Assembly (NCBI GenBank): GCA_016926235.1
Contig: JAFGOZ010000548.1
Span: 1 to 15,915 of the forward strand
From: Bacteroidales bacterium
GTDB lineage: Bacteria; Bacteroidota; Bacteroidia; Bacteroidales; UBA10428
Reading direction: 5' to 3'
Length of the DNA stretch: 15,915 nucleotides
Shown: piece by piece, positions 894 through 15,568 of the stretch
Position numbering within the stretch: position 1 is the stretch's first letter
Layout of the letters: each line of letters starts with the position of its first letter
Notes under the pieces: generated by a model
What the model was told of the DNA's origin: nothing
Database searches by the model: none
Seen by the model: only the letters and a program-made list of their open reading frames with translations
Translations under genes and position numbers: made by a program

Positions 894-1238
894 ATGGAAA
901 AGATGAAGTTAATTGAAGTAAAAGCGTGCAACGGCGTTAGGATTGTTAAAATTGAATCCATAGTTACAATTCGGACAGCCGGGCGGCATTCTGTTATCAC
1001 GCTTTGTGACGGTAAATCATTCGAAGCGTTTCACAGTATAGGATGGTTCGATGAGCGACTTCAAAAACCTGATTTTTGCCGGTGTCATCAATCGCATATT
1101 GTTCACTGCCGGTATATCGAAAGCCTGAATTACACTTCCTTCAGGTTGAAAGTAAATGGATTCGGCGAAGTGCCTTTTTCACGGAAATACAAATCGGAAC
1201 TATTGAGCAATCTTAAAACGTACCTGGCACAGAATTGA
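894..1238 (+). CDS. Stand-alone LytTR-type DNA-binding regulator
   Basis: This 114-residue protein is essentially one LytTR domain (about residues 12-110). It shows the family's layout: beta strands around VKIESIVTIRTAGRHSVI, a middle FEAFHSIGWFDERL helix, the FCRCHQSHIVH segment equivalent to the 'F.RiHrS.lVN' signature, and a C-terminal VPFSRKYKSELL resembling 'lpvSR.y...l'. LytTR proteins bind direct or inverted repeats upstream of target promoters and commonly control bacteriocin and peptide-signal loci (AgrA, PlnC, ComE). There is no receiver or membrane domain, so how it senses a signal cannot be seen. ATG 894 and ATG 903 are both possible starts; neither has a Shine-Dalgarno, as usual in Bacteroidota. 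Its position directly before the peptide block suggests a local regulator (inference). Confidence 0.85.
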   Translation: MEKMKLIEVKACNGVRIVKIESIVTIRTAGRHSVITLCDGKSFEAFHSIGWFDERLQKPDFCRCHQSHIVHCRYIESLNYTSFRLKVNGFGEVPFSRKYKSELLSNLKTYLAQN

Positions 1239-1411: not shown

Positions 1412-2443
1412 TTGGAAGCTATACATCAAAACATTCTGGAAAGAATCACAAATATTCTCCTGCTAAATGCCAGCTTTATCGATAACCTGGGACTTATGCA
1501 TGGTAAGATGGGAATATGCATTTTCTTTTATCATTTGGCAAGAAAAACCGGCAGTAAGGATTATGAAGAATATGCAGGTGAATTGCTTGATGAAATATTT
1601 GAAGAAATCTGCCAAGAAACACCATGGGATTTCGAAAATGGACTTGCTGGAATAGGATGGGGTATTGAGTACCTGGTAAATAATAATTATGTCGAGGCTG
1701 ATACGGATGATGTTTTAGCTCAGGTTGACCAAAAGCTTTTCTGGGAATTAATCTATACTCCTCCACATACAATAGGTTTACTTAATGGACTTTTAGGGAT
1801 TGGTATGTTTTTTCTAAGTCGAGTTCAAAGCAATAAAACTCATAAAAGTCAGATTCCCTTGCTTACAAATAAATACATATTGATCCAGTTTATTGAGGAG
1901 CTTGAAAGAAGAATTGAAATAATAGCAGAAATACCCCAAATGATTAAATGCAATTCTCAGGTTCCTGACCTTACGTGGGACTATCCTGTTATTCTCGGTC
2001 TAATGGCTGAATTATACCAAATTGATATATTCAATTATAAGGTTAATAAAATTATCTATCAATTGATTGAACTTTTGAATAATAATAATTTACCCACAAC
2101 TCCTGAGAACCGGATTTTATTAGAAATGGCTTTAGAAAAAGTTAAAAAGTGTGGTATAAATAAACTATTGCCAAGAGACTCGTTGGCGCTGAAAAACCCA
2201 ACAAAAAATCAACCGGGTGGTGAAGGACTTAATACTGGAATCAACTGGATATTCCGCACATTGTTTAATAATCCGAGAAAAAATGAAGGAAGTGCATTGA
2301 ATTCTTATCAATTGTCAGATGAGATTCATACTGGACATATATCAGATAATAAACGATTTAATGACCTTCTTAATGAGGGTTATCAAAATTTAGGACTACT
2401 TAATGGAATTGCAGGATTGGGACTACTACTTATGGACATATGA
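1412..2443 (+). CDS. LanC-like (lanthionine synthetase C-like) protein lacking zinc ligands
   Basis: The product (about 343 residues) shows the repeated GxxG turns of the LanC alpha/alpha-toroid: GLMHGKMG (27-34), ENGLAGIGWG (75-84), GLLNGLLGIG (about 122-131) and GLLNGIAGLG near the C-terminus. LanC enzymes cyclise dehydrated peptides using a zinc held by Cys, Cys-His. Here no WCYG- or CHG-type motif is present: the only Cys residues are outside those places, so classical cyclase activity is unlikely. It may be a scaffold or peptide-binding protein (inference). No ATG lies near the expected N-terminus; TTG at 1412 is the only conventional start before the ATG at 1496, which would remove the first GxxG repeat. 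The open frame continues upstream of 1412 (see findings). The stop overlaps the next gene's start (ATGA). Confidence 0.75.
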   Translation: MEAIHQNILERITNILLLNASFIDNLGLMHGKMGICIFFYHLARKTGSKDYEEYAGELLDEIFEEICQETPWDFENGLAGIGWGIEYLVNNNYVEADTDDVLAQVDQKLFWELIYTPPHTIGLLNGLLGIGMFFLSRVQSNKTHKSQIPLLTNKYILIQFIEELERRIEIIAEIPQMIKCNSQVPDLTWDYPVILGLMAELYQIDIFNYKVNKIIYQLIELLNNNNLPTTPENRILLEMALEKVKKCGINKLLPRDSLALKNPTKNQPGGEGLNTGINWIFRTLFNNPRKNEGSALNSYQLSDEIHTGHISDNKRFNDLLNEGYQNLGLLNGIAGLGLLLMDI

Positions 2444-3684
2444 GCAAGATTAACTGGTTAATATTGGCCAACAGTGATAGGGGAACCGATTATGGTGTAG
2501 GCACATTCATCAAGCAATTAGCCTATGGTTTGTCGATAAACCCTGGAATAAGTGTTTATATAATTGAAATTGGAAAGATGAAACAAACTGGATTTGAGAT
2601 TGAGAATAAAGAAAGAATTACTTACATATATATTACCCTACCTGGTAATGCCAAATATATTGCCACAAATAATAAAAAAAACAACTCAAATCTTTACCAA
2701 AAAAAAGTTGCTCGAACGATTGTTCGACTAATCAAGGGATACTTAGCGATTAGCGAGAAAAATGTAGTACATCTAAACTTTGTTTATCAATATTTTATTG
2801 GATTGGAATTTAAAAACCAATTAAATTGTAAGGTTATATTTACTCAGCATTTGTTTGCTTTCATTCCAAAAGAGGTACAAGAACTTGATACTGAAAAAGA
2901 TACCTTTAATCTTGTTGACAAGCTGGTAACGGTTACAAAGCATGGTAAAAGCCATTTATTTAAAAAATACAAAGATTCTAGTAAGATAAAAGTTATATAT
3001 AATGGTATTCAGCCAGATTGCTTAAAGTTAAGAACTACAAAAGATGTTCTTTTCAATAAATACGGTTTAAAAAAGACAGAAAGAATTATTCTTTACAGTG
3101 GCAGGATTGATTTGATAAAAGGTCTGGAATATCTGGCACAGGCGTTTAGCATTCTGCTAAAAGAATTACCTGATTGTCGCTTAGTAATAGCAGGTGACGG
3201 CGAAATTGAAGAATTAATCCAGTTAACACAATCATTCTCTTCACAAGTGAGTTATCTTGGATATCTTCCCAATACGGATATGGTTGGATTGTACCATATC
3301 GCAAATATTGGTGTTATCCCCTCTTTAGAAGAGCACTGCAGTTATGTGGCGCTTGAAATGATGCATTGTGGGCTGCCGGTAGTTGTTTCAAGTGTAGGGG
3401 GATTAAAGGAATTATTTATACACAACAAGAATGCGCTCTTATGCAAAATGGTAAAATCTAAAAGCAAAGCTCACCCGATTTTAATTAATGAGAAGAGTAT
3501 TCAAATGATAAATCCCTTTCAGAAAACTCCCGATGTTGTTTCTTTGGCAAAGGCTATGATAAAGCTACTGAAGAACAAAGAATTGCAATATGAGTTTTCA
3601 AAAAAGCTTGAATCAACCTCTAAAAAGTACACTGCAAAAAGAATGGGGCAGGAATATTTTGAACTCATTAGGGATCTGAATTAG
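2440..3684 (+). CDS. GT4-family glycosyltransferase, GG-Bacteroidales peptide-system type
   Basis: A 414-residue GT-B enzyme. The N-terminal half contains a glycine loop, DYGVGTFIKQL (17-27), typical of GT4 acceptor domains. The C-terminal half has SGRIDLIKG (220-228), the nucleotide-sugar-binding LVIAGDGE (248-255) and an EX7E motif with E298 and E306 (EEHCSYVALE), followed by GLPVVVSSVGG. This is the retaining glycosyltransferase family 4 arrangement. The length and neighbourhood recall the glycosyltransferases described as TIGR04157, found beside double-glycine peptides in Bacteroidales; membership is from memory, not a search. Its ATG overlaps the LanC-like stop by four bases (ATGA), indicating coupled translation. 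The substrate could be the precursor peptide at 5466 (inference) or a carrier lipid. Composition is strongly AT-rich. Confidence 0.88.
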   Translation: MSKINWLILANSDRGTDYGVGTFIKQLAYGLSINPGISVYIIEIGKMKQTGFEIENKERITYIYITLPGNAKYIATNNKKNNSNLYQKKVARTIVRLIKGYLAISEKNVVHLNFVYQYFIGLEFKNQLNCKVIFTQHLFAFIPKEVQELDTEKDTFNLVDKLVTVTKHGKSHLFKKYKDSSKIKVIYNGIQPDCLKLRTTKDVLFNKYGLKKTERIILYSGRIDLIKGLEYLAQAFSILLKELPDCRLVIAGDGEIEELIQLTQSFSSQVSYLGYLPNTDMVGLYHIANIGVIPSLEEHCSYVALEMMHCGLPVVVSSVGGLKELFIHNKNALLCKMVKSKSKAHPILINEKSIQMINPFQKTPDVVSLAKAMIKLLKNKELQYEFSKKLESTSKKYTAKRMGQEYFELIRDLN

Positions 3685-3700
3685 ACTATTATGAAACGTT

Positions 3701-5362
3701 ATGCAAGATAATGCATTATATGTTGTTCAGCAGGCTATTAAATCCTTCCATTTAAAGGTAACCCTTACTGGTTCAGAAGATTATCTCCTTTCTCATCCAT
3801 ATTACCCTTCACTTTTAAGTCTTTATGATGCGTTTAAAAGTTGGGGAGTTGAACCTTACGCATTAAAACTAAATATACAGGAAATTAGAGACATTAACAG
3901 ACCCTTTATTGCACATCTTAACAATACTGGTGGACAATTGGCCTTTGTTTATAGCATAAAAAACAACATTGTATTATACTCAATTGATAAAACTGGTAAA
4001 AGAAGCGAACAACTTGAAAAATTTGCCCTTCAGTTTTCTGGTGCAGTAATTATAATTAATCCTAAAAGGGATTCAAGAGAAAAAGAATTTAAAGTAAAAC
4101 TACAAAATGAAATCTTAGATCTTATACTTATACCACTAGTTATTGCATTAATATTAATATTAGGTGCATTTGTCTCAATTATAGCTATTAAACCTATTTT
4201 TTTAACAACATGGTGGATTTTGGCAATAATCAAAACCATCGGTTTAATTGCCTCTTTATTATTGGTTTTACATGATTTTAAGGTATATATTCCGCTTATT
4301 CATAAATTGTGCAGCCTAAGTTCTGAGATTGATTGCAACAGTATTATTAATTCAAAGGCCTCTAAAGTATTTGGATGGCTGAATTGGACCGATATAGGCT
4401 TGATATACTTTACAAGTACCCTACTTTTTTTACTCAGTAATCCAGATAAAACAGCCATAAGTATTCTCAAAATTTTAAGTTACCTTTCTGTTATATTCAC
4501 ATTTTATTCAATTTACTTTCAAGCTTTCAAAGCGAAAAAGTGGTGCCCTTTCTGCCTTATAGTTCAGTTAGTTCTAGTTGCTGAATTGATAATATTAGTT
4601 TACCAAAAGCCAGTTATATCTTTATCATATTATAGCGTATTGAGTTTATTTGTATTGTTTTCTATAACATCGACTATTTATATGTTACTAAAATCCAGTT
4701 TGTTAAAAAAACAAGAAACAAACAGGTATCTTTTACTTTATCGGCAATTCAAAAGGGATCCATGGATATTCAAACAGTTACTTAAAAAGAACGGGTATGC
4801 ATTCATTAACACTTCACAAAATTGTATTTTTTTTGGTAACCCTAATAGTGAAGTTACAATAATAAGCTTTCTCAGTTTCTATTGCAATTACTGCTCAATA
4901 GTTTTCAAAAAATTGATAACACTTATTGGCGAATCAGACAAAGTGAAATTCATTCCCGTTTTTGCAATTAATAACGCCCCAGAAACTAAAAAGCTTATGG
5001 CACATATTTATACTTTGTTCAACACTAAAGGCAAAAAGGATGTAATTGAATTTATTGAAAAATGGTATGAACATGCGCCCACCTCAGGAAATAGAATACT
5101 TAAGTCGATTATAGCAAATGAAAGTAGCGACTTAATTGGAAAACTGGCAACAGAGAATAATGAATTATTTAGTCAATTAAAAGTTGATATCACACCTGTT
5201 TTATATTTAAATGGATATAAATTGCCTCCTATGTATAATGTCGATGAATTAAAGTATTTTATTGATGAAATCGTCCAATTAGTTCAGGGAGACAGCCAAA
5301 AAGTAGAACAGAGCGTAACTAATGAAAATTCGTACCAGAAGTCTACAAAAGAAAGGAGGTGA
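3701..5362 (+). CDS. Membrane thiol oxidase: degenerate C39-like + VKOR + DsbA-like thioredoxin fusion
   Basis: Three regions are visible in 553 residues. Residues 1-125 resemble a C39 peptidase fold but have no Cys in the catalytic position and no catalytic His, so this part is probably a peptide-binding domain. Residues about 138-330 are hydrophobic, with around six membrane segments and the four VKOR cysteines: C204 and C212 (CX7C, the spacing seen in human VKORC1 C43/C51) and the CPFC pair C282/C285. Residues about 380-530 form a thioredoxin-like domain with CNYC (C395/C398) and the Thr-cis-Pro loop (T498-P499). VKOR domains pass electrons from a DsbA partner to quinone, so this fusion should make disulfides outside the cytoplasm. 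The next gene encodes a four-cysteine secreted peptide, its most likely substrate. ATG 3701 starts 16 bases after the glycosyltransferase stop. Confidence 0.9.
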   Translation: MQDNALYVVQQAIKSFHLKVTLTGSEDYLLSHPYYPSLLSLYDAFKSWGVEPYALKLNIQEIRDINRPFIAHLNNTGGQLAFVYSIKNNIVLYSIDKTGKRSEQLEKFALQFSGAVIIINPKRDSREKEFKVKLQNEILDLILIPLVIALILILGAFVSIIAIKPIFLTTWWILAIIKTIGLIASLLLVLHDFKVYIPLIHKLCSLSSEIDCNSIINSKASKVFGWLNWTDIGLIYFTSTLLFLLSNPDKTAISILKILSYLSVIFTFYSIYFQAFKAKKWCPFCLIVQLVLVAELIILVYQKPVISLSYYSVLSLFVLFSITSTIYMLLKSSLLKKQETNRYLLLYRQFKRDPWIFKQLLKKNGYAFINTSQNCIFFGNPNSEVTIISFLSFYCNYCSIVFKKLITLIGESDKVKFIPVFAINNAPETKKLMAHIYTLFNTKGKKDVIEFIEKWYEHAPTSGNRILKSIIANESSDLIGKLATENNELFSQLKVDITPVLYLNGYKLPPMYNVDELKYFIDEIVQLVQGDSQKVEQSVTNENSYQKSTKERR

Positions 5363-5465
5363 TATGAAGTAATTTGAAATAAAAAAAGATGATAAATCCA
5401 ATAAGTCATGGTAGTATCGAGGTCTTATGTCCTAAGGTTTTATTATTAAATTAAATTCTAAATGT

Positions 5466-5684
5466 ATGAAAAAACTTGAAAAACTTAACATTTCACCAAT
5501 AAAGGTATTAAGCGATGGAGAATTGGTGAAGCTTAAGGGAGGTATTACCTTAGCATGCAACTGCGATGGATACCTCCCAGGAGGTGGTGGTTGGTTTTAT
5601 GTTAGTGCTCCCTCACAGGCAGAAGCAATCTATATGGCTACAATAAAGTGTGGTCATTATCCAGGATGGTGTCAACAGGGTTAA
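5466..5684 (+). CDS. Double-glycine leader precursor peptide with four-cysteine core
   Basis: The 72-residue product has a textbook double-glycine leader: basic start MKKLEKLN, then LSDGELVKLKGG (residues 15-26), matching the LSxxELxxIxGG pattern read by C39 peptidases. Cleavage after G26 would release a 46-residue core. The core has four cysteines, C31, C33, C62 and C69, giving two possible disulfides; C62 and C69 are spaced CX6C. It contains a GGGG run (39-42), several aromatics and a likely helix from about S47 to I60. No Ser/Thr-rich block typical of lanthipeptides is present, only T28, S47, S50 and T59. It lies between the thiol-oxidase gene and the first propeller lipoprotein, and the C39 transporter at 7378 is the obvious processing and export partner. 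The mature activity (antibacterial, signal, other) is unknown. Confidence 0.88.
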   Translation: MKKLEKLNISPIKVLSDGELVKLKGGITLACNCDGYLPGGGGWFYVSAPSQAEAIYMATIKCGHYPGWCQQG

Positions 5685-5691
5685 TTTGGTT

Positions 5692-5710
5692 AAAGAGGTC
5701 GACTCTTTTT
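5692..5710 (+). terminator. Hairpin terminator after the precursor gene
   Basis: AAAGAG (5692-5697) and CTCTTT (5703-5708) form a 6-bp stem around GTCGA, ending in a run of T. It begins 8 bases after the precursor stop codon. Such a partial terminator just after a precursor is common in peptide clusters, since it lets the precursor be made in excess over downstream genes. The stem is short, so read-through is likely. Confidence 0.55.
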
Positions 5711-5836
5711 AAAGAATAGCACAATTATAGTTTGGGCTCTCATACAATAATGGTGCCTTATTAGTAAGGTAATCAAATATGTAATAATTAAAGTTTCTCC
5801 TTTAGACTTCATGCTGTCTTATGAGTCGACCACTTT
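5692..5836. repeat. 14-bp imperfect inverted repeat spanning the gap after the precursor
   Basis: Positions 5692-5705 (AAAGAGGTCGACTC) and the reverse complement of 5823-5836 (AAAGTGGTCGACTC) agree at 13 of 14 bases. They are 117 bases apart. Both contain a GTCGAC palindrome. The remainder of the 5685-6031 gap holds a small CCTTA/TAAGG hairpin near 5756-5769, a palindromic site at 5943-5955 and no convincing reading frame. The arms could pair in the transcript or mark the ends of a small inserted segment. Confidence 0.55.
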
Positions 5837-5942
5837 ATATATAAAAATATTCTATGATTTATTAACTTAACTAATTATCATTTATCTAAGCAAAATAAAC
5901 TTTTCTTTAGGCATTTATCGGACATAAATTCAAATTGATATT

Positions 5943-5955
5943 TTTATAGTATAAG
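5943..5955. promoter_or_regulatory. Palindromic operator-like site TTTATAGTATAAG
   Basis: This is a 6-1-6 palindrome with one mismatch (TTTATA-G-TATAAG). It lies 76 bases upstream of the first propeller gene. An almost identical, perfect version (CTTATAGTATAAG) sits 72 bases upstream of the tolC-like gene. Shared sequence extends to TTATAGTATAAGRTG. A shared regulator or promoter element is inferred. Confidence 0.45.
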
Positions 5956-6031
5956 ATGGAAGCAGCCCTATAATAAAACAACAATTTTAATCAAGTATTT
6001 AAATCACTATCTGATAATAAATTAGTTTTTT

Positions 6032-7171
6032 ATGAGAACCTTTTCATTATTATTATTCATAATTATTACATTTTCATGTCAAAACGAAAATCGTAACCTA
6101 TTGGTAATAAATACAAATGCAAAAAATTATTCAAAGGAATATCTATCACAGATATTTAAAAAGAGTGAGATAGTGAAACTTGAGACTCTAGACACTTGCC
6201 TGGTAAGACATGTTAGCCAAATTGTAAAAACAAAGGATTATATTTTTATAAATGATATGAACAAAGTACTTCAGTTTGATTCTGATGGAAAGTTTATCAG
6301 ACAGATAGGAAGCATCGGACATGGACCGGGACAATATTATGGGGTATTTGGAATGACAATTGATACAAGCTCGAAGTCAGTTATTATATCAGCCATCTAT
6401 CAATTATTATGCTACGATTTTAATGGCCGATTTTTGAATTCCATCCTGAAAACAGGAGATTTCACAACAGATTATATGTGCTTCATTAATGGACAATTAT
6501 GGACATATAATAAAAGACTAGTGATACCAATAGATAAGGGGAAATTTTTAGAACAAGGATGGCTATATATATACGATAGACAATTGAATATTACAGATAG
6601 TATTTTAACAAGGCAAGTTTTTGTTAATAATAGAGCTTTTCAATTTGGAAATTTGCCAAATATACTTTCAGTCCTTAAGTCCGGAATTTATATTTACTGT
6701 CCAGTATCTGCCCCGGAACCGCTTCTTAGAGATACTGTTTATAGGATTTCAGAATTCAAAATGATACCTTCAATAAAGCTTGATTTTTCTGAAATATTAT
6801 CTTTGAGAGATGACCTTAAACTCGATGCAAATACAATGAGTCCTGAAGATTTCAGAAGTAATATAAATTTAATCAGAAGTGTAAATATTAAAAATATATA
6901 TAGGACTGAAGAATTTGTGTTTGTAGAATATGATAATAGAGGTAAGCCCTATTTTTTTTGTTACGATATAATTCATCAATTGAGTTATAATATGTCTGAA
7001 GGCCTTACTGATGATTTGTTTGGGATCGGTAAACCGGTACAACTCATTCCTTTGGATCTTCTAGAAGGTAAGTTTTGCTTTGTTAAAAATGGATATGAGG
7101 TTCCAAGTATTATTGATGGAGTAAATGAAAACAGTAATCCCGTGATTTTCTTTCTTAAAACGAAAGAATAG
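6032..7171 (+). CDS. 6-bladed beta-propeller lipoprotein (DUF5128/BF4221-like), first copy
   Basis: The 379-residue product begins with a short lipoprotein signal, MRTFSLLLFIIITFSC, with the lipidated Cys at position 16. It then shows features of the 6-bladed beta-propeller lipoproteins of Bacteroidota: an early IVKLET, repeated 'KDYIFIND...VLQFDSDGKFIRQIG' blade strands, and the blade turn GHGPGQY (96-102). These lipoproteins are widespread in Bacteroidales and often sit in peptide-export loci; their function is not established. The last dozen residues (ENSNPVIFFLKTKE) nearly match those of the paralogue at 14363, as does much of the C-terminal half. Its composition is more AT-rich than the paralogue's. 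It could be a surface or periplasmic sensor, a chaperone for the exported peptide, or an immunity protein; none of these can be chosen from the sequence. Confidence 0.85.
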   Translation: MRTFSLLLFIIITFSCQNENRNLLVINTNAKNYSKEYLSQIFKKSEIVKLETLDTCLVRHVSQIVKTKDYIFINDMNKVLQFDSDGKFIRQIGSIGHGPGQYYGVFGMTIDTSSKSVIISAIYQLLCYDFNGRFLNSILKTGDFTTDYMCFINGQLWTYNKRLVIPIDKGKFLEQGWLYIYDRQLNITDSILTRQVFVNNRAFQFGNLPNILSVLKSGIYIYCPVSAPEPLLRDTVYRISEFKMIPSIKLDFSEILSLRDDLKLDANTMSPEDFRSNINLIRSVNIKNIYRTEEFVFVEYDNRGKPYFFCYDIIHQLSYNMSEGLTDDLFGIGKPVQLIPLDLLEGKFCFVKNGYEVPSIIDGVNENSNPVIFFLKTKE

Positions 7172-7377
7172 TTACATATAAAAATATATCATTTCATTTT
7201 TCAAGTTTCCTTTTTCCTTCTACTGTCGTTTAAGTTTTAGCTTAGACAATCAAAATCTTACTAAAAACGTAATGTCTTTTCACGTTGTAACTGTTTGTTT
7301 CATATAGTTTAATGAGGTTAGATGAATGAGTTCATTACTTTTTGAAAGAATTGAATAATTGCAAGTGAATTTAGCAC

Positions 7378-9588
7378 ATGAAGTTTTCACATTACAAACA
7401 ACTCGATTCCATGGATTGCGGCCCAACCTGTTTACGAATGGTTTCCAAGCACTATGGTAAGAGTTATAGTACAGAGTATTTACGAAACAATTCGTTTATC
7501 ACCCGTGAGGGCGTTTCCATGTTGGGTATCAGCGAAGCTGCAGAAAGAATAGGATTTCGGACAAGGGGTTACAGGCTTACCTGGGAACAACTGCGTGATG
7601 AGGTACCGTTACCCTGCATAGTCCATTGGAACCAGAGGCATTTTATAGTGGTTTATGATATTATTAGAAATGGGAGGCACAGGACAGGTGATGCATTGGT
7701 TCGTGTGGCCGATCCGGCAAATGGTTTGCTGGAATACTCCAAAGATGAGTTTCTGAAATGCTGGTTGAGTCATAAAGAAAATGGCGCAAACGAGGGAGCT
7801 GCTTTGCTTCTGGAACCCACCCCTGATTTTTATTCGCATGAAGATGAAAAAGTCCCGAAGACTAGATTTTTATATCTACTGGGTTACCTGAGACCCTACA
7901 CTAAGTTCATATTTCAGTTAGGACTTGGTATGTTAGCAGGAAGTGTTTTGAGCCTCATTTTTCCCTTTCTGACACAGTCGATTGTGGATTATGGCATCGG
8001 CAACAGCGATCTGGCTTTTATCTTACTGATTTTAGCCGCTCAGATGGTGCTAACATTAGGGCAAACAGCCAACGGATTCATCCGCAACTGGATCATGTTG
8101 CACGTGACCACCCGGATCAGTATATCCCTGATCTCGGATTTTCTCATCAAACTGATGCGGCTGCCCATAGCCTTCTTTGATACAAAAATGATCGGCGATA
8201 TCATGCAGCGCATCCAGGATCATCACCGCATCCAGTCTTTTCTAACACAGTCGTTGGTAGACATCATTTTTGCATCAATCACGCTAATCATCTATACGGT
8301 TATCATGGCTGTATACCACGTTGGTATCCTGGGTGTGTTCATTCTCGGCAGTGTTTTGTATATATCATGGGTTTTGATTTTTCTGAAAAGAAGGAGGGAG
8401 ATCGATTATAAACGTTTCCAGCAGGCATCGGCCAATACCAGCAATATTGTGCAACTGGTTACCGGAATGCAGGAGATTAAGCTCAATGCCTGCGAAAAGC
8501 AAAAACGCTGGGAATGGGAAAGTATACAGGCACGGTTGTTCAAAGTAAGTATCAAAGGACTGGCATTAAACCAAAACCAGCAATTGGGCGCCACTTTTAT
8601 CAACCAGTCCAAGGATCTTTTTATCTCGTTTCTTTCAGCCAAAGCGGTAATTACCGGCGATATGACCCTGGGCATGATGATGGCCGTGCAATACATTATC
8701 GGACAACTCAACGCCCCTATTCAGCAATTTATCGGTTTTACCCAGGCAGCCCAGGATGCAAAGATCAGTCTGGAAAGGCTGGGTGAGATTCATAACCGTG
8801 AAGATGAAGAAAAACCCGAAGATAACAGGATACAGGAGATACCAGGCAGCGGAAATATTGAAGTTTCCGGTATTACCTTCCAGTATGAGGGCCCGCATTC
8901 TGAGAAAGTCCTGGATGATGTCTCGCTGGTCATTCCTGCAAACCAGATAACAGCCATAGTGGGTACCAGCGGCAGCGGAAAAACAACCTTGTTAAAACTC
9001 CTGCTTGGTTTTTATGAACCGGTTAAAGGCAAGATTAAGCTCAATGGCATGGAACTGAACCAGTACAGTCAGTCGCAATGGCGAAAACGCTGTGGTGTGG
9101 TGATGCAGGAAGGCTTTGTATTTTCGGATTCCATTGCCAACAATATTGGCATAATGGATGAAGTGCCAGACAGGAACAAACTGGAGCAAGCAGTGAAAAC
9201 CGCCAATGTGAATGAATATATCGAATCACTGCCTCTCCGGTACAACACCCGGATCGGGAATGACGGTCACGGCCTTAGCACCGGTCAGAAACAAAGAATA
9301 TTGATTGCAAGGGCAGTTTATAAAGACCCTGATTATATTTTCTTCGATGAAGCAACCAACTCACTCGATGCTAAAAATGAACGGGTGATCATGGAAAACC
9401 TGAAACAGTTTTTCAGGGGCCGCACAGTGGTGATTGTGGCGCACCGCCTGAGCACGGTAAAAAATGCTGACCAAATTGTGGTGATGGAGAAGGGGAGGAT
9501 TGTGGAAACTGGAAACCACAAAGAGCTGGTAAAAAAGGAAGGGGCGTATTTTAATTTGGTGAGGGATCAGTTGGAATTGGGGAAGTAA
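7378..9588 (+). CDS. Peptidase-containing ABC transporter (C39 peptidase, PCAT type)
   Basis: The 736-residue protein is a complete bacteriocin-type exporter. An N-terminal C39 peptidase (1-145) carries C14 in DSMDCGPTCL, H88 in QRHFIVV and D112 in VADPANG, with Q8 as oxyanion residue. A six-helix membrane domain follows (about 160-460). The ATPase has Walker A GTSGSGKTT (529-537), a Q-loop in VVMQEG, signature LSTGQ (633-637, Thr replacing the usual Gly), Walker B YIFFDE (653-658) and the H-loop His689. It should cut double-glycine leaders and move the core peptide across the inner membrane. The precursor at 5466 has the matching leader. HlyD- and TolC-like partners follow, completing an envelope-spanning exporter. 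Composition is clearly richer in GC than in the upstream AT-rich block, and a 206-base gap without clear terminator precedes it. Confidence 0.96.
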   Translation: MKFSHYKQLDSMDCGPTCLRMVSKHYGKSYSTEYLRNNSFITREGVSMLGISEAAERIGFRTRGYRLTWEQLRDEVPLPCIVHWNQRHFIVVYDIIRNGRHRTGDALVRVADPANGLLEYSKDEFLKCWLSHKENGANEGAALLLEPTPDFYSHEDEKVPKTRFLYLLGYLRPYTKFIFQLGLGMLAGSVLSLIFPFLTQSIVDYGIGNSDLAFILLILAAQMVLTLGQTANGFIRNWIMLHVTTRISISLISDFLIKLMRLPIAFFDTKMIGDIMQRIQDHHRIQSFLTQSLVDIIFASITLIIYTVIMAVYHVGILGVFILGSVLYISWVLIFLKRRREIDYKRFQQASANTSNIVQLVTGMQEIKLNACEKQKRWEWESIQARLFKVSIKGLALNQNQQLGATFINQSKDLFISFLSAKAVITGDMTLGMMMAVQYIIGQLNAPIQQFIGFTQAAQDAKISLERLGEIHNREDEEKPEDNRIQEIPGSGNIEVSGITFQYEGPHSEKVLDDVSLVIPANQITAIVGTSGSGKTTLLKLLLGFYEPVKGKIKLNGMELNQYSQSQWRKRCGVVMQEGFVFSDSIANNIGIMDEVPDRNKLEQAVKTANVNEYIESLPLRYNTRIGNDGHGLSTGQKQRILIARAVYKDPDYIFFDEATNSLDAKNERVIMENLKQFFRGRTVVIVAHRLSTVKNADQIVVMEKGRIVETGNHKELVKKEGAYFNLVRDQLELGK

Positions 9589-9590
9589 AA

Positions 9591-9662
9591 ATTAAAGAAT
9601 TAAAGAATTAAAGAATGAAGGAATAAAAAATATAAAAATGAAAAAATTAAGAAATAGGAAAT
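9591..9662 (+). repeat. Octamer array (ATTAAAGA), left arm
   Basis: Three exact ATTAAAGA units are followed by six degenerate ones (ATGAAGGA, ATAAAAAA and so on). The array starts two bases after the transporter stop and ends at the four-helix-bundle start codon. Its inverted counterpart lies at 10037-10087, so the two arms bracket that gene. Confidence 0.8.
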
Positions 9663-10028
9663 ATGAAAGAGAATGTTTTAAAGGATAAATCGTATGAGTT
9701 TGCATTGCTTATTGTTAAAGCGTTTCAAAAACTTTCTCGCGAACAAAAGGAGTTTGTGCTTTCAAAACAGTTGTTGCGAAGCGGCACCTCAATCGGAGCT
9801 AATGTTGAGGAAGCTTCCGGAGGAATTTCAAGGAAGGAATTTATAGCAAAGCTACAGATATCCTTTAAGGAAGCAAAAGAAACCCGGTACTGGTTACGCT
9901 TGCTTTATGATTCAGGATATCTGGAGAAAAAAGACTTTGTAATACTCATGGATCTTTGTGATGAACTTTTACGCATTATTGCTGCCATTCTTAAAACCAC
10001 CAAAAACAATTCCGGTAATAACACATAA
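9663..10028 (+). CDS. Four-helix bundle protein (23S rRNA intervening-sequence / S23 family)
   Basis: The 121-residue product matches this small all-helical family throughout. It shows an opening 'YEFALLIVKAFQKL' helix, the hallmark LLRSGTSIGANVEEA segment (about 39-53), then SRKEFIAKLQISFKEAKETRYWLRLL, and a final helix with DELLRIIAAILKT. Relatives occur inside 23S rRNA intervening sequences and as solitary genes across Bacteroidota; they form pentamers and are related to the Avd protein of diversity-generating retroelements. The function of the solitary form is unknown. Here it splits an otherwise continuous transporter-HlyD pair and is bracketed by inverted octamer arrays, which looks like an inserted passenger (inference) rather than a part of the exporter. 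No reverse transcriptase or variable repeat is visible nearby. Confidence 0.93.
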   Translation: MKENVLKDKSYEFALLIVKAFQKLSREQKEFVLSKQLLRSGTSIGANVEEASGGISRKEFIAKLQISFKEAKETRYWLRLLYDSGYLEKKDFVILMDLCDELLRIIAAILKTTKNNSGNNT

Positions 10029-10036
10029 CGCATTCA

Positions 10037-10087
10037 TTTTCTATTTTTTAATTCTTTAATTCTTTAATTTTTTAATTTCTTAATTCC
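10037..10087 (-). repeat. Octamer array (ATTAAAGA on the minus strand), right arm
   Basis: Read on the minus strand this is ATTAAGAA, ATTAAAAA, ATTAAAGA, ATTAAAGA, ATTAAAAA and ATAGAAAA, the same 8-base unit as 9591-9662 in the opposite direction. It stops one base before the HlyD start codon, so it forms the entire immediate 5' region of that gene. Confidence 0.8.
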
Positions 10088-10088
10088 G

Positions 10089-11390
10089 ATGCTTCATCCC
10101 GAATCAGAAAAAATAGAGCTTCACAGCGAACCCGTCCGCGAAATCATGACCGAGATCCCGGGCTGGATTTTACGTTGGGGATTGACCGTATTATTTGGCA
10201 TAGTTGTATTGCTTGTACTTGGTGCCTACCTGATAAAATATCCTGAAACCGTTTCGGCCCCGATATTAATTACAACAACCAAGGCCCCGGCTGCAATGAT
10301 CTGCAAAGCATCAGGCAAGATTGATAGGTTGCATGTAAAAGAAGGTCAGCAAGTGACAAAAGGTTATCTTATCGCAGTTATAGAAAACACGGCGAATTAT
10401 GAGCATTATTGCCTGCTGAAAAAGGAAATGGAAGGAATTGATCTGGAAATGAACTGGCAGGAAATTGTATTGGAAAGAGAAAATATCGGAAATCTTTCAC
10501 TAGGAAACATGCAGCCACTGTATGAGCAATTCAGAAAAACCTGGAATGATTTCAGGAATTACCTCCTACAGGGTTATATTCAACATAAAATAGTTCTGAT
10601 AGAAAAGCAAATAAAGAAGCAGCAGGAGTATCATCAGATTTTGCTCCAGCAGAAAGAAATCGCAAATAGCGATAGATTACTTGCTATCAGGAAGTTTAAA
10701 AGAGATTCTGCTGTTTATATTGGCGGAGGATATAGTATAACCGAATATGAAACTGAAAAGCAACAACTCAATCAGAAAGAAGTTTCAGTAAAGAGTATGG
10801 AGGCATCTGTCAAGAATTCTGAACTGACCATTATCACTTTAACCCAAAACATTTTGGAATTAAAACTCCAAATGGAGAATGAAGTATCTCAATATTTACT
10901 GAATCTCGATGAAATAAAACAAAACCTGGAAACGGCGATACGTGCTTACGAGGAACAATACCTGATCAGAAGTCCGATTGAAGGTACCATAACTTTATCA
11001 TCATTCTGGAGTGAAAACCAGGTGGTAACAACCGGCGACAAGATAGCTACGGTTGTTCCTGAAGGAGTAACAACCATAATCGGTAAAGCTGTTATTCCGG
11101 CAGAAAGGTTCGGGAAAGTGGAACCGAACCAGCGGGTGATTATCAAACTTTCCGGTTATCCTTATATGGAATATGGGGTACTGCAAGGAATTGTCGGTGA
11201 TATTTCAAAAATCCCTGAAAAGGATGGATATGTTGCTGAAATTGAGTTGCCTGATGGTATGTTTACCAGTTATCATAAAAGGCTACAGTTCTCTCAGGAG
11301 ATGAGTGGTTCGGCAGAAATTGTTACCAGAGAAACACGGTTGATTGACAAGTTTATTAATCCTCTTAAGTCGATTGCAAAGAATAATTAA
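10089..11390 (+). CDS. HlyD-family periplasmic adaptor (membrane fusion protein)
   Basis: The 433-residue protein has one N-terminal membrane anchor (about residues 27-49). A biotinyl-lipoyl half-motif follows: AMICKASGKIDRLHVKEGQQVTKG (69-92). Next comes a long coiled-coil hairpin (about 105-290, rich in Glu/Lys/Gln heptads), then the second half-motif RSPIEGTI with VVTTGDKIATVVPEG, and a beta-barrel region towards the C-terminus. This is the layout of adaptors that join a peptidase ABC transporter to a TolC-type channel. Upstream is that transporter and downstream the channel, so the three should form one type I secretion complex. No Shine-Dalgarno is present; the ATG is preceded directly by the octamer array. 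Confidence 0.93.
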   Translation: MLHPESEKIELHSEPVREIMTEIPGWILRWGLTVLFGIVVLLVLGAYLIKYPETVSAPILITTTKAPAAMICKASGKIDRLHVKEGQQVTKGYLIAVIENTANYEHYCLLKKEMEGIDLEMNWQEIVLERENIGNLSLGNMQPLYEQFRKTWNDFRNYLLQGYIQHKIVLIEKQIKKQQEYHQILLQQKEIANSDRLLAIRKFKRDSAVYIGGGYSITEYETEKQQLNQKEVSVKSMEASVKNSELTIITLTQNILELKLQMENEVSQYLLNLDEIKQNLETAIRAYEEQYLIRSPIEGTITLSSFWSENQVVTTGDKIATVVPEGVTTIIGKAVIPAERFGKVEPNQRVIIKLSGYPYMEYGVLQGIVGDISKIPEKDGYVAEIELPDGMFTSYHKRLQFSQEMSGSAEIVTRETRLIDKFINPLKSIAKNN

Positions 11391-11418
11391 ACCTTAAAGT
11401 TACATGCTTTTATCGATA

Positions 11419-11480
11419 TGAAACAACCTGAAACAACCTGAAACAACCTCAAACAATCTGAAACACCCTGAAACAACCTA
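11419..11480 (+). repeat. Decamer array, six units of TGAAACAACC
   Basis: Units TGAAACAACC, TCAAACAATC and TGAAACACCC follow one another at exactly 10 bases in the 123-base gap between the adaptor and the second glycosyltransferase. The array ends about 33 bases before the next start codon. Same family as 521-580. Confidence 0.85.
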
Positions 11481-11513
11481 CATCCTGAATCTTAATGCCA
11501 GAAACAAATAGCC

Positions 11514-12302
11514 ATGACTAGTGAAACCAGAAAAGACCTAACCGACATCACTTTTACAATTCCATTGAGAGTTGATTCGGATGAACGGATTGAAAATTTG
11601 GAGATAGTGATTGACTTCCTGAAAAGTCATTTTTTTTCAAACATCATAGTTTTGGAAGCAGGTATGGCGGAAAAGTACATTACTGCCGATGATGTCATTA
11701 AAATCTTTGTGAAGGATGATGATCCTGTTTTCCATGCAACAAAGTATCGTAATGAGATGATACGGCGGACAACCACAAATTTTGTAGCCCTATGGGATTC
11801 CGACGTTTTGGCGCCGGTTGATCAAATAATTCAGGCGTATGAATTATTAAGGAAGAATTTAACTGATGTGGTATTTCCCTATGATGGAAAATTTTATGAT
11901 ACTCATGCACTTTTTAAAAGCATGTATAAAGAAAATCAGGATATTGCAATATTTGAATATAATGTTGATAAATTTAAACTAATGCATGGTTTGCATTCTG
12001 TTGGTGGTGCAGTATTCATGAACAGGGAGAAATATCTCCTTGCCGGTATGGAAAACGAAAAGATTTATGGTTGGGGCCCTGATGATTATGAACGCGTAAA
12101 ACGTTGCGAAATATTGGGATATAAAATATCATGGATAGATGGCCCGCTGTTTCACCTGCACCATCCCAGGGGCAAAAGCGGCTGGTTCTATTCCGATGAA
12201 ATCAACATCCGGTCAAAACAGGAGTTTTTTAAGGTCTGCCGGATGAACAGGCAGGAATTGTCGGATTATGTGCATGGAGAGGAATGGAATGAAAAAAACT
12301 AA
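11514..12302 (+). CDS. Galactosyltransferase-like GT-A glycosyltransferase
   Basis: A 262-residue GT-A enzyme. It has a Rossmann-like start (ITFTIPLRVDSDERIENLE), the metal-binding DxD motif in ALWDSDVLAP (D95, D97), the GWGPDDYE motif (186-193) equivalent to GWGxED of galactosyl- and N-acetylgalactosaminyltransferases, and PLFHLHHPRG (211-220) supplying a His metal ligand. This is the pattern of the galactosyltransferase C-terminal family (GT7/GT27-like). It is soluble, with no membrane segment or signal, so it works in the cytoplasm. Its position inside the secretion operon, between adaptor and outer-membrane channel, suggests it modifies the exported peptide rather than a surface polysaccharide (inference). 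ATG 11514 is supported because the ATG at 11495 is out of frame and closes after eight codons. Confidence 0.85.
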   Translation: MTSETRKDLTDITFTIPLRVDSDERIENLEIVIDFLKSHFFSNIIVLEAGMAEKYITADDVIKIFVKDDDPVFHATKYRNEMIRRTTTNFVALWDSDVLAPVDQIIQAYELLRKNLTDVVFPYDGKFYDTHALFKSMYKENQDIAIFEYNVDKFKLMHGLHSVGGAVFMNREKYLLAGMENEKIYGWGPDDYERVKRCEILGYKISWIDGPLFHLHHPRGKSGWFYSDEINIRSKQEFFKVCRMNRQELSDYVHGEEWNEKN

Positions 12303-12390
12303 CAACTTAGTTGCATGACTAAATTATTAGTTGTATTTTTAAATTCAAATTTTATCACACTCCAAACCCAGCCCCCAGCACCCAACAACA

Positions 12391-12530
12391 TGAAACCATA
12401 TGAAACGCTATGAAACAACATGAAACCATCTCCCGCCTTCGCTAAAGCTGCGGACGGGCAAAGGAAACCTGAGACAATCTGAAACAATCTGAAACCACCT
12501 GAAACAAATTTGAAACAACATGAAACGCTA
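12391..12530 (+). repeat. Decamer array (TGAAACNNNN) interrupted by a GC-rich hairpin
   Basis: Four units (TGAAACCATA, TGAAACGCTA, TGAAACAACA, TGAAACCATC) are followed by the hairpin at 12432-12458 and then about six further units ending with TGAAACGCTA. The array fills most of the 354-base gap between the second glycosyltransferase and the tolC-like gene. The rest of that gap is an AT-rich stretch (12303-12370) with nothing recognisable and the palindromic site at 12572-12584. Confidence 0.85.
12432..12458. repeat. Imperfect GC-rich hairpin inside the decamer array
   Basis: CCCG (12432-12435) pairs with CGGG (12455-12458), and an inner CGC/GCG pair encloses TAAAGCT, with mismatches between. 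The element interrupts the 10-bp array cleanly, with units on both sides, so it looks inserted into a pre-existing array. Similar 'CCGCCTTCGCTAAAGC' palindromes are, from memory, dispersed in Bacteroidota genomes. Confidence 0.5.
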
Positions 12531-12571
12531 AATATTAAGTTTTTTTGTCTAATTTTCCGCTAGTTATTCGA

Positions 12572-12584
12572 CTTATAGTATAAG
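12572..12584. promoter_or_regulatory. Perfect palindromic operator-like site CTTATAGTATAAG
   Basis: CTTATA and TATAAG are exact reverse complements around a central G. The site is 72 bases before the tolC-like start codon. Its near copy at 5943-5955 is at almost the same distance from the first propeller gene. A weaker relative (TATAGTTTAAT, 7303-7313) lies about 65 bases before the transporter gene. Confidence 0.5.
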
Positions 12585-12656
12585 GTGATTGAAATGTGAG
12601 TAGGGTTGGCTGTTTGGCGTGAGTAGGAATATAGTTTTCTCATTAAGAACTTACAC

Positions 12657-14135
12657 ATGAGCCCTGTTAAGTGCTATTTTTTCGTCGTATTACTTTTTCC
12701 TTCAATTTTATTGGGACAGAGTACGCTAACATTGTCTGATGCAATCAGGATAGCGACCGACAGCTCCCTTGCAGCCTTCAGAGCGGAGAACCTCTATAAG
12801 GCGGGTTACTGGGAATACCGTTCTTACCTTGCCCAGAAAAAACCTTCACTTACGCTCAACACAACCCCTCTGAGTTACAACCGGTCGTTTACACAGCGCT
12901 ATAATTCGGTGCTCGACATTGACGAATATCGTCAGCAGCAGAGTCTCTATTCCTATGCGAATGCCAGTCTGAGCCAGAACCTGCCCTTTACAGGAGGATC
13001 ACTATATGTGGATTCTGAAATAGGTCGCCTGCAGAACTTCGGTGACAATGAATATACTCAGTTTTCGTCTGTACCGATAAGAATAGGACTGATTCAGCCT
13101 ATCCTTGGGTATAACAGATTCAAGTGGCAGCGCAAAATCGAACCCCTGAAATACGAGATTGCCAAAAAAAGCTATGTACAGTCCACCGAAGCCATTTCTC
13201 TGCAAATGGTCAATTATTACTTTGACCTGCTGGCTGCGCAAATTCAAGTTGAAATGTCGAGGACAAACCTCGCCAATGCGGATACGTTATACAATATTGG
13301 ACAAAAACGCCTCGAAATTGCCACGCAATCACAGGCCGACGTGCTAACCCTGAAGGTCACGGCTCTCTCTGCACGCAATGAACTTGCCACAGCGATCAAA
13401 CAATTGCAAAGCGCCCGTTTCATGTTATACTCTTTCCTGAAGCTCAACAACAGTCAGGATGTGGAACTCAAACTGCCCGATCAGCTTCCGGATTTCCAGG
13501 TGACTTTTGATAAAGCACTCGCACAGGCCCTGGAAAACAATCCCGATCTGCTTGACTACCGCCAGCAGGTTCTTGAATCGGAAAGCACAGTGGAGCGTAC
13601 GAGACGAAACGGACTTATGGATGCGTCACTGATGGCAAGCTACGGACTTAACCAGCAAAGCACAGACCTGCCGGGTTCATACCGTGATCCGTTGAACCAG
13701 CAGAATGCATCATTAGGGGTATCCATACCCATAATCGACTGGGGTCAACGAAGGGGACAATATAACATGGCAAAGAATAACTATGAGGCTGTGAAGCTGA
13801 GCGCCGAACAGGCTGAAATTGACTTCCGCCAGACGGTGATGCTGGCCGTCAGCAACTTCAACATGCAGCATGATGTGGTGACAACGGCTTTTGAGACCCG
13901 TGAAGCAGCACGTCAGGCATACAACATCACCAAACAGAGGTTTATAATCGGAAAAACCGATGTGAACAGTCTGACTCTTGCCCTCGAACGCCAGGATCAG
14001 GCCAACCTGACTTATATTGAAGCGCTCCGGCTATTCTGGAGCTATTATTATACGGTAAGGCGGGTCACATTGTATGATTTTGAGAATGATAAAACGTTGA
14101 TGGATGGGCTTGATGAGGAGGTTGGGATTAGGTAA
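12657..14135 (+). CDS. TolC-type outer membrane efflux protein (OEP family)
   Basis: The 492-residue product has a Sec signal peptide (residues 1-20, hydrophobic VKCYFFVVLLFPSILLG). Two OEP repeats of long helices follow: TLTLSDAIRIATDSSLAAFRAE near the start, and the second repeat opening with 'FDKALAQALENNPDLLDYRQQV' at about 281-302. The characteristic SIPIIDWGQRRGQYNMAKNNYE strand-turn-helix sits near 360-380. These features match TolC-like trimeric channels. It would complete the exit path for the C39 transporter and HlyD adaptor. The gene is the most GC-rich in the window and has its own upstream palindromic site, so it may have a separate promoter. Confidence 0.92.
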   Translation: MSPVKCYFFVVLLFPSILLGQSTLTLSDAIRIATDSSLAAFRAENLYKAGYWEYRSYLAQKKPSLTLNTTPLSYNRSFTQRYNSVLDIDEYRQQQSLYSYANASLSQNLPFTGGSLYVDSEIGRLQNFGDNEYTQFSSVPIRIGLIQPILGYNRFKWQRKIEPLKYEIAKKSYVQSTEAISLQMVNYYFDLLAAQIQVEMSRTNLANADTLYNIGQKRLEIATQSQADVLTLKVTALSARNELATAIKQLQSARFMLYSFLKLNNSQDVELKLPDQLPDFQVTFDKALAQALENNPDLLDYRQQVLESESTVERTRRNGLMDASLMASYGLNQQSTDLPGSYRDPLNQQNASLGVSIPIIDWGQRRGQYNMAKNNYEAVKLSAEQAEIDFRQTVMLAVSNFNMQHDVVTTAFETREAARQAYNITKQRFIIGKTDVNSLTLALERQDQANLTYIEALRLFWSYYYTVRRVTLYDFENDKTLMDGLDEEVGIR

Positions 14136-14137
14136 TG

Positions 14138-14362: not shown

Positions 14363-15568
14363 ATGAATACCTACAGATCAAACATCAGTTCTTGCTATTA
14401 CAATCGATTATTAACCGGACTAATGATCATTTGCGCATTATTTTCCTGCAATAACAAGCATGATGAGTCGGTAATGGTTATCGATACAGAGGCTGGTAAA
14501 TCAGCTCCTGCCAATCTGTCTGAAGTTTTTGATCCAATAAAAATGGTGAAACTCGAAACCGGAGATTCTATAATGATTGGCCGTGTTGATGGAGTGTATG
14601 TGACAAAGGATTTTATTCTTATTGAACAATTTGGCGGATCAGAGAAAAAATTTCTGAAATTCGACAGTAATGGTCATTTTATTGCCAGTATTGGAAAATT
14701 CGGACACGGTCCCGGAGAATACACCTTCTTTTCCGGGGTAGCGATTGATACAGCACTGCAGAGGATTGTACTTCCCACATTCACAGATTTTATAGTCTAT
14801 AATTTTAAGGGTGATTTTGTTCAATCAGTATCCAGAAATATTGTTGACTTAAATAATCCTGATTTGATCAATGAATCCCTTACATGTTCAGATGGACATT
14901 ATTGGCAAACGGTTTACAGACCCATGATGGAATCAGATAACGGAGGATTCATGGAACGAAAATTATTATATAAGTTGGATGATAAGTTAAAAATATTAGA
15001 TAGTATTCTGGTGCGGCAGGTATTTCTTAAGATGAAGATATTTACTGGAGGATTTGGTGGAGAATATATGTCCAGGCTCAAATCGGGGATGTATTACTAT
15101 TGCCCTGTATTTTCGGCTGAACCTGTTCTGCGGGATACATTATACCGGATCGAGGAATCAAAACTTATACCGGTCATCAAACTGGATTTTTCGGATGTAC
15201 TTTCTGTAAAGGAGGATACTTATGCCAATGCTGATTTCAGTGACTATGTCGGGAAGTATATGTACGAGATCAGGAATATTACCCTCCGTAGCATTTATAG
15301 AACTGATCGCTATGTATTTGCTGATTACTATTACAATAGGGATAATCGTTTATTTTGTTATGATCTGAAAGGCACAAGACGATTCAATATGTCCAAAGGA
15401 TTCACTGACAATCTGTTTGCGACAGATTCAACGGTTCATCTTATGCCTGTGGATCTTGACAAGGGCGAATTTTGTTATGTTCGTAACGGATACGAGTTGG
15501 AAGGGAAAATTGAAGGCATTAATGAGAACTCGAATCCGGTGATATTTTTTATTAAGACGAAAGAATAG
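14363..15568 (+). CDS. 6-bladed beta-propeller lipoprotein (DUF5128/BF4221-like), second copy
   Basis: A 401-residue paralogue of the protein at 6032. The signal region ends in ALFSC with the lipidated Cys at 29. MVKLETGDSIMIGRV and the blade turn GHGPGEY (114-120) align with the first copy. The C-terminal halves are plainly homologous: LKSGMYYYCPVFSAEPVLRDTLYRI against LKSGIYIYCPVSAPEPLLRDTVYRI, and the end ENSNPVIFFIKTKE against ENSNPVIFFLKTKE. It follows the tolC-like gene after repeat arrays and precedes a third member. Base composition is more balanced than in the first copy. Function is unknown; see that entry for possibilities. ATG 14363 gives a slightly long n-region before the hydrophobic stretch; no better start is visible. 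Confidence 0.85.
   Translation: MNTYRSNISSCYYNRLLTGLMIICALFSCNNKHDESVMVIDTEAGKSAPANLSEVFDPIKMVKLETGDSIMIGRVDGVYVTKDFILIEQFGGSEKKFLKFDSNGHFIASIGKFGHGPGEYTFFSGVAIDTALQRIVLPTFTDFIVYNFKGDFVQSVSRNIVDLNNPDLINESLTCSDGHYWQTVYRPMMESDNGGFMERKLLYKLDDKLKILDSILVRQVFLKMKIFTGGFGGEYMSRLKSGMYYYCPVFSAEPVLRDTLYRIEESKLIPVIKLDFSDVLSVKEDTYANADFSDYVGKYMYEIRNITLRSIYRTDRYVFADYYYNRDNRLFCYDLKGTRRFNMSKGFTDNLFATDSTVHLMPVDLDKGEFCYVRNGYELEGKIEGINENSNPVIFFIKTKE

What the first reader, a model, noticed from the sequence alone, without database searches (positions are those of the whole stretch)
1412..14135. Candidate glycosylated, disulfide-bonded peptide system in a Gram-negative cluster
The sequence shows a GG-leader precursor with four core cysteines, a VKOR-DsbA fusion that would form disulfides, two unrelated glycosyltransferases (GT4 and GT-A) and a complete C39-ABC/HlyD/TolC exporter. 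No dehydratase or radical SAM enzyme is present. That combination is the toolkit of glycocins such as sublancin (precursor, glycosyltransferase, thiol oxidase, C39 exporter) transplanted into an envelope-spanning export system. C62 and C69 have the CX6C spacing seen in glycocins, although the N-terminal pair (C31, C33) does not, so the fold would differ. Which glycosyltransferase acts on the peptide, if either, is inference.
Basis: partly seen in the sequence, partly recalled or inferred. Interest (0 to 1): 0.8.

Follow-up and report, generated by a model that had tools for sequence, protein, structure and literature searches.

The report
Disulfide-rich secreted peptide cluster, probably glycosylated
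This stretch encodes a bacterial production line for a small secreted peptide that is probably stapled by disulfide bonds and perhaps decorated with sugars, one member of a family whose peptides share one address tag but have very different bodies; what the peptides do is unknown.

Summary
The cluster is real: GG-leader precursor (72 aa, core Cys 31/33/62/69), C39-like/VKOR/DsbA fusion, GT4, GT-A and C39-ABC/HlyD/TolC exporter. Relatives show a conserved Bacteroidota system. A profile of 17 precursors found 538 proteins; in the 120 read, leaders are alike (median identity 77%), cores differ (29%), and core Cys number is even in 116, which strongly supports disulfides and speaks against Cys-linked sugar. 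In 140 genomes of one family, precursor and VKOR fusion co-occur (7 of 9 each, p 7e-9), and close relatives of GT4 (7 genomes) and GT-A (6) occur only where the LanC-like gene does. GT4 directly precedes the VKOR fusion in 14 of 20 copies. Glycosylation of the peptide is the best reading but unproven, and optional: several precursor genomes lack both GTs. A propeller gene follows 18 of 28 precursors and tracks core similarity, not leader or VKOR, suggesting a cognate immunity or receptor protein. 'Glycocin' membership is not supported: CX6C is in 7 of 120 cores and the GTs best match other families.

The parts
894..1238 (+). stand-alone LytTR DNA-binding protein, possible regulator of the cluster
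   Evidence: PF04397 E 3.9e-14; membership in the system is inference from position
1412..2443 (+). LanC-like protein, predicted LanC toroid without zinc ligands; proposed GT partner
2440..3684 (+). GT4 glycosyltransferase, TIGR04157-like; overlaps the LanC gene by 4 bases
3701..5362 (+). C39-like domain without Cys + VKOR + DsbA-like thioredoxin fusion; proposed thiol oxidase
   Evidence: Cys 204, 212, 282, 285, 395, 398 invariant in 14 of 14 aligned fusions; first 130 residues of the window protein hold no Cys
5466..5684 (+). precursor peptide: 26-residue GG leader and 46-residue core with 4 Cys
6032..7171 (+). 6-bladed beta-propeller with a lipoprotein-like N-terminus (judged by eye); proposed cognate immunity or receptor protein
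   Evidence: PF17170 1.8e-28; a propeller is the next ORF after 18 of 28 precursors; propeller tracks core similarity
7378..9588 (+). C39 peptidase-ABC exporter (PCAT type)
   Evidence: PF03412 3.2e-30, PF00664, PF00005
10089..11390 (+). HlyD-type periplasmic adaptor
11514..12302 (+). GT-A glycosyltransferase, Glyco_transf_7C/B4GALT-like, conserved WDxD and GWG motifs
   Evidence: 18 of 18 aligned members match PF02709; PDB profile hit B4GALT7 E 1e-6; motifs
12657..14135 (+). TolC-type outer membrane channel
   Evidence: PF02321 1.5e-38
14363..15568 (+). second 6-bladed beta-propeller, without a recognisable precursor in front of it
   Evidence: PF17170 3.9e-22; no GG-leader ORF of 50 aa or more just upstream in the ORF list

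Best explanation
This is one locus of a Bacteroidota system that makes, oxidises and exports hypervariable disulfide-rich peptides, here with a glycosylation module. Proposed order: the precursor is made in the cytosol; GT4 and the GT-A, both without membrane segments, add sugar to Ser/Thr of the core, helped by the LanC-like protein acting as a non-catalytic docking scaffold (inferred); the C39 domain of the ABC transporter removes the leader at GG and the peptide leaves through ABC-HlyD-TolC (family knowledge); the VKOR-DsbA fusion, whose Cys-free C39-like domain may hold the leader, forms the disulfides (strongly supported by Cys parity and co-occurrence, not shown biochemically); the propeller encoded next to the precursor binds the mature peptide as immunity or receptor protein (inferred from pairing and co-variation). 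The likely product is a bacteriocin-like peptide; activity is not shown.
For: Even core Cys number in 116 of 120 relatives (simulated mean 59.8, maximum 78 of 120). Precursor and VKOR fusion share 7 genomes, 9 each out of 140, p 7e-9. Close GT4 relatives in 7 genomes and GT-A in 6, all with LanC-like, p 4e-9 and 1e-7. Adjacency: GT4 next to LanC, GT-A or VKOR in 19 of 20, directly before VKOR in 14 of 20; GT-A next to LanC, GT4 or an exporter gene in 20 of 24 (loci were chosen by LanC, GT-A, VKOR or precursor, so these are not independent samples). L110 repeats the window's order LanC-GT4-VKOR-precursor-partner-ABC-HlyD, then three further ORFs, then GT-A. GT-A motifs are conserved. In L054, GT-A, LanC and exporter stand with a Cys-free, Asn/Ser/Thr-rich GG precursor in a genome without a VKOR fusion at 1e-15. 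A propeller is the next ORF after 18 of 28 precursors; core-propeller rho 0.24, p 0.006 (n 23) and 0.57, p 0.0013 with one pair per genome (n 13), against leader-propeller 0.08, p 0.29 and core-VKOR 0.07, p 0.31 (n 14).
Against: No direct evidence that either GT acts on the peptide. Precursor genomes without close GT4 or GT-A relatives: G017 (Draconibacterium mangrovi), G323, G431, G447 in the family scan and G061, G135; apart from G017 their completeness is not known. G447 has two Cys-rich precursors but no VKOR fusion at 1e-15, so the pairing of precursor and fusion is not strict. GT-A plus LanC also occurs in genomes without a VKOR fusion (G261, G342), so the modules are separable. The Ser/Thr before the fourth Cys (52 of 52 CCxC cores) may simply cap a helix. 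The fold model of a relative's precursor has no PDB match. Core-propeller correlation is weak to moderate, fell from 0.38 (n 18) to 0.24 (n 23), and could reflect joint inheritance of neighbouring genes. The side on which the C39-like domain lies is unresolved. Cores are acidic (median charge -4, window -1), unlike many bacteriocins.
Confidence: 0.6

Rival explanations
1. Disulfide-only bacteroidetocin-like bacteriocin; the GTs and LanC-like protein modify something else at the envelope, such as the propeller lipoprotein or a surface glycan, and merely travel with the exporter.
For: Several precursor genomes lack both GTs; G135 has four precursor-propeller cassettes with VKOR and exporter and no LanC or GT in the fetched region and no GT4 or GT-A in the genome. 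O-antigen-ligase-like genes lie near two loci, L019 and L065.
Against: Close GT4 and GT-A relatives are rare (7 and 6 of 140 genomes) and sit beside LanC, VKOR or exporter genes; L054 has GT-A, LanC and exporter with a Cys-free Asn/Ser/Thr-rich precursor and no VKOR fusion in the genome, one locus only.
Confidence: 0.3
2. A glycocin in the strict sense, with two nested CX6C disulfide pairs and SunS-like glycosylation.
For: Precursor + GT + thiol oxidase + C39 exporter is the same kit of functions; one CX6C pair in the window.
Against: Two CX6C pairs in 2 of 120 relatives, any in 7; best GT matches are other families; even Cys parity leaves no spare Cys, whereas thermoglycocin's precursor has seven Cys and GlcNAc on Ser and Cys (PMC12457901, abstract and passages).
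Confidence: 0.03
3. A degenerate lanthipeptide cluster in which the LanC-like protein closes thioether rings.
For: LanC fold; LanB-like genes lie near the LanC-like gene in L006 and L012.
Against: No dehydratase found in the window; no zinc-ligand-like Cys column or CH motif in 32 aligned proteins; VKOR partner and even Cys number indicate disulfides.
Confidence: 0.03
4. A secreted signalling peptide rather than a toxin: the propeller lipoprotein is a surface receptor and the LytTR protein the regulator.
For: LytTR gene upstream; propeller tracks the core; cores acidic.
Against: No membrane transducer among the window genes typed; several different precursors per genome (four hits each in G017 and G135) fit a toxin-immunity array at least as well.
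Confidence: 0.25

Closest known systems
Bacteroidetocins (class IIf; PMC6671954, passages seen)
   Same: Bacteroidota, GG leader, 42-residue core with four Cys, dedicated thiol oxidoreductase, C39-ABC exporter
   Different: 15-residue leader against 26 here; four-gene region with a 5-TM protein; the passages seen name no GT, LanC-like or propeller gene and report no obvious immunity protein
Glycocins (sublancin, glycocin F, thermoglycocin; PMC12457901, abstract and passages)
   Same: precursor, glycosyltransferase, thiol-disulfide enzyme, C39 exporter
   Different: GTs best match other families, no nested CX6C pairs, even Cys number, envelope-spanning exporter, LanC-like and propeller genes
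TIGR04149/TIGR04157 Bacteroidota RiPP clusters, including BGC3-5 with LanC-like proteins lacking zinc motifs (PMC10352776, passages)
   Same: related GG leader, TIGR04157-like GT4, zinc-less LanC-like protein
   Different: those clusters carry radical SAM and pseudo-radical-SAM enzymes; the window carries a VKOR-DsbA fusion instead
Conotoxin precursors (recalled, no call)
   Same: conserved leader, hypervariable Cys-framework core
   Different: unrelated organisms and secretion route; analogy only

Membership tests
Glycocin | two nested CX6C disulfide pairs (CX6C from the finding; nested pairs from PMC12457901) | tested here: not met
   one CX6C in the window; two in 2 of 120 relatives, any in 7 of 120
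Glycocin | SunS-type peptide glycosyltransferase | tested here: inconclusive
   no NCBIfam family for the GT-A at E 0.01 and TIGR04157 best for GT4; GT-A matches Glyco_transf_7C in 18 of 18; SunS itself was not fetched or compared
Glycocin | sugar on the secreted core | not testable with these tools
   needs mass spectrometry
Bacteroidetocin | GG-leader peptide with four Cys, thiol oxidoreductase and C39-ABC exporter in one region | tested here: met
Bacteroidetocin | sequence similarity of the core to bacteroidetocins | not tested
   bacteroidetocin sequences were not fetched; leader lengths differ (15 in PMC6671954, 26 here)
TIGR04149 radical-SAM-modified RiPP | score above the family cut-off | tested here: not met
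   23.0 bits against cut-off 25
TIGR04149 radical-SAM-modified RiPP | radical SAM enzyme in the cluster | tested here: not met
   no such family for the 13 window proteins scanned
Lanthipeptide class I | LanB dehydratase and zinc-binding LanC | tested here: not met
   no PF04738 hit; no column with Cys in 10 or more of 32, no CH dipeptide in 32
Cysteine-stabilised alpha-beta (defensin-like) peptides | helix CxxxC joined to strand CxC | tested here: inconclusive
   model of relative P0122 is b-b-a-b with CxxxC on the helix and CCxC at a strand, core pLDDT about 82-91, but bonds were not examined and no PDB match was found

The most novel reading that the evidence does not exclude
A lineage-restricted, hyperdiverse arsenal of glycosylated disulfide-rich peptides in Bacteroidota: one near-invariant leader feeds many unrelated Cys frameworks into a shared oxidase and exporter, an optional two-GT plus pseudo-LanC module glycosylates them on Ser/Thr, and each peptide travels with a cognate beta-propeller immunity or receptor lipoprotein as an exchangeable cassette.
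Probability: 0.3. Interest if true: 0.82.

Novelty: new variant of a known kind. Interest (0 to 1): 0.63.

Why it matters
It would extend disulfide-rich, possibly glycosylated secreted peptides to a Gram-negative phylum, give zinc-less LanC-like proteins of Bacteroidota a role as glycosyltransferase partners, show that a leader family now labelled radical-SAM-modified also serves an oxidase-based pathway, and give PF17170 propellers a testable function as peptide partners.

Tried and rejected
Window genome: not held. Precursor single-sequence search: only itself, solved by a profile. VKOR and LanC in viral contigs: no relatives. GT4 in plasmids: none at 1e-30. LanC PDB search by sequence: none; profile: one weak hit. 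Radical SAM as part of the system: by Pfam in L002 and L003; other loci were screened only by a CxxxCxxC motif, so rejected as a core part but not counted exactly. CX6C as a glycocin mark: rejected. Ser/Thr before the fourth Cys as glycosylation site: kept only as a lead, since helix capping explains it as well. CCxC cores going with GTs (7 of 7 genomes against 7 of 14, p 0.03): chosen after seeing the data and hand-classified, lead only. PADLOC: no hits for the two propellers and IVP. Phylum-wide precursor search, 0 of 395 genomes: the tool itself warns that an empty answer shows nothing. Foldseek and VIA-align gave no relatives of the precursor model. Literature: nothing describing this combination in the listings (open-licence PMC only; one search was swamped by unrelated words).
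Full report
What is in the window. All cluster genes lie on the + strand: LytTR protein, LanC-like, GT4 (overlapping LanC by four bases), C39-like/VKOR/DsbA fusion, precursor, propeller, C39-ABC, IVP, HlyD, GT-A, TolC and a second propeller (families).

Conserved system. A LanC profile gave 26 genome loci. By my reading, of these 26, 16 carry GT4, 12 GT-A and 14 the VKOR fusion (all at 100 bits or more) and 11 a GG precursor by the leader model; 20 have at least one GT. Many contigs are short. L026 has only a weak LanC match and is included. A search by GT-A alone hit 7 of 295 genomes of the order and 6 of 140 of one family; in the enlarged regions, LanC, GT4 or exporter genes stand beside most of them, the exceptions being L053, L058 (weak hit) and one of two copies in L057. 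Across the 140 genomes: precursor 9, VKOR fusion 9, GT4 7, LanC 12, GT-A 6; overlaps precursor-VKOR 7 (p 7e-9), GT4-LanC 7 of 7 (p 4e-9), GT-A-LanC 6 of 6 (p 1e-7), precursor-GT4 5 (p 6e-6), precursor-GT-A 3 (p 0.003). These p-values treat genomes as independent. Counts depend on thresholds: G008 has a VKOR fragment at a contig end (L010) that the threshold missed. L110, the full contig of L009, has the window's order up to HlyD and a GT-A three ORFs further on.

Precursor family. A profile of 17 precursors found 538 proteins at E 0.01; the best 120 were read. Core Cys numbers: 2 (1), 3 (1), 4 (10), 5 (1), 6 (81), 7 (2), 8 (23), 10 (1); even in 116 of 120, against a simulated mean of 59.8 and maximum of 78. 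Median identity of 600 random pairs is 0.77 for leaders and 0.29 for cores. 52 of 120 fit CC-x-C ... CxxxC ... C. Two related cores (P0126, P0140) lack both the first and the last Cys of the pattern, which suggests that these two are bonded; this is probably one event. The window belongs to a four-Cys subtype with CxC, a helix-like stretch and C-x5-7-C, like P0240, P0195 and P0213, so CX6C is incidental. In the 23 precursors from loci that are followed by a propeller, parity is even in 20, less clean than the database set. A model of the six-Cys relative P0122 has a b-b-a-b core at pLDDT about 82-91 and a low-confidence leader; no PDB fold matched. The window's own precursor was not modelled.

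The oxidase. In 14 aligned fusions the six VKOR and DsbA cysteines are invariant. The window's first 130 residues hold no Cys; the only column there with Cys in 4 or more of the 14 (11 of 14) has Tyr in the window. The C39-like domain is therefore probably a dead peptidase that may bind the leader (inference). Hydropathy is high from about residue 132 to 200 and 251 to 331; which side the C39-like domain faces is not settled.

The glycosyltransferases. Neither GT nor the LanC-like protein has a hydrophobic segment over the threshold used, consistent with cytosolic action before export. The aligned GT-A family keeps WDxD and GWG motifs and matches B4GALT7 by profile (E 1e-6). The 19 aligned GT4 proteins all match TIGR04157, whose model name glyco_rSAM_CFB points to radical SAM loci. 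In L054, GT-A, LanC and exporter occur with a Cys-free, Asn/Ser/Thr-rich GG precursor, and that genome (G261) has no VKOR fusion at 1e-15; G116 (L055, Cys-rich precursor, no VKOR in the region) has two fusions elsewhere. This is what separable oxidation and glycosylation modules would predict, on very few loci. Against: G447 has two Cys-rich precursors and no VKOR fusion. Against an obligatory role of the GTs: G017, G323, G431, G447, G061 and G135 have precursors and no close GT4 or GT-A, and G135 shows a VKOR/exporter locus with four precursor-propeller cassettes. Sugar on the core is the best reading but unproven; even Cys parity favours Ser/Thr over Cys.

The propeller. Of 28 precursors with a following ORF of 150 aa or more, 18 are followed by a propeller; two with the same core type (L009, L093) are followed by an aspartyl-protease-like gene instead (in L093 the match is below Pfam's cut-off). 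Using only precursor-propeller pairs, core similarity correlates with propeller similarity (first set n 18: rho 0.38, p 0.0018; n 10: 0.48, p 0.010, against core-VKOR 0.03, p 0.46; enlarged set n 23: 0.24, p 0.006; one per genome n 13: 0.57, p 0.0013), while leader-propeller (0.08, p 0.29) and core-VKOR (0.07, p 0.31, n 14) do not; propeller-VKOR is 0.21, p 0.12; letter-shuffled cores give mean 0.04, maximum 0.125 in 30 shuffles. This fits a cassette of peptide and cognate partner, but joint inheritance of neighbours is not excluded, and the correlation fell when data were added.

Range. The precursor profile hit 9 of 140 genomes in one family, 2 of 393 in the order sample and 0 of 395 in the phylum sample: apparently a lineage-restricted system, at this profile's sensitivity.

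Relation to known systems. It works like a bacteroidetocin locus with added modules and shares functions with glycocins, but does not meet the nested-CX6C test. I found no description of this combination in the listings searched, which hold open-licence papers only.

Noticed in passing
window 14117-14222 and 15562-15748: Tandem 10-base repeats (GTTTCAnnTG-like, and AACAATCTGA-like in the second block) flank the second propeller gene, partly as inverted copies; possible recombining cassette borders.
   Followed up: partly
window 14227-14271 (-): Rfam Acido-Lenti-1 RNA above gathering score (43.3 bits, cut-off 37), between TolC and the second propeller.
   Followed up: no
window 9663-10028: A 23S rRNA-intervening-sequence-type protein gene sits between the ABC and HlyD genes.
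   Followed up: no
proteins P0019, P0052, P0071, P0076, P0098 in alignment A1: LanC-like relatives carry long, variable Asn/Gln/Thr/Ser-rich inserts, some looking like translated dispersed repeats.
   Followed up: no
L006:16499-18745, L012:13063-15264: LanB dehydratase-like genes (PF04738) in loci with LanC-like genes in Bacteroidota.
   Followed up: partly
L009:4592-5476, L093:7307-8200, L054:14650-16143: Retropepsin-like aspartyl protease genes next to GG precursors, in L009 and L093 with the same core type.
   Followed up: partly
L107 and L108: Genome G135 carries four precursor-propeller cassettes around one VKOR fusion and exporter.
   Followed up: partly
L023:4986-6503: Sulfotransferase-like gene directly after ABC-HlyD-GT-A-LanC, a possible further tailoring enzyme.
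   Followed up: no
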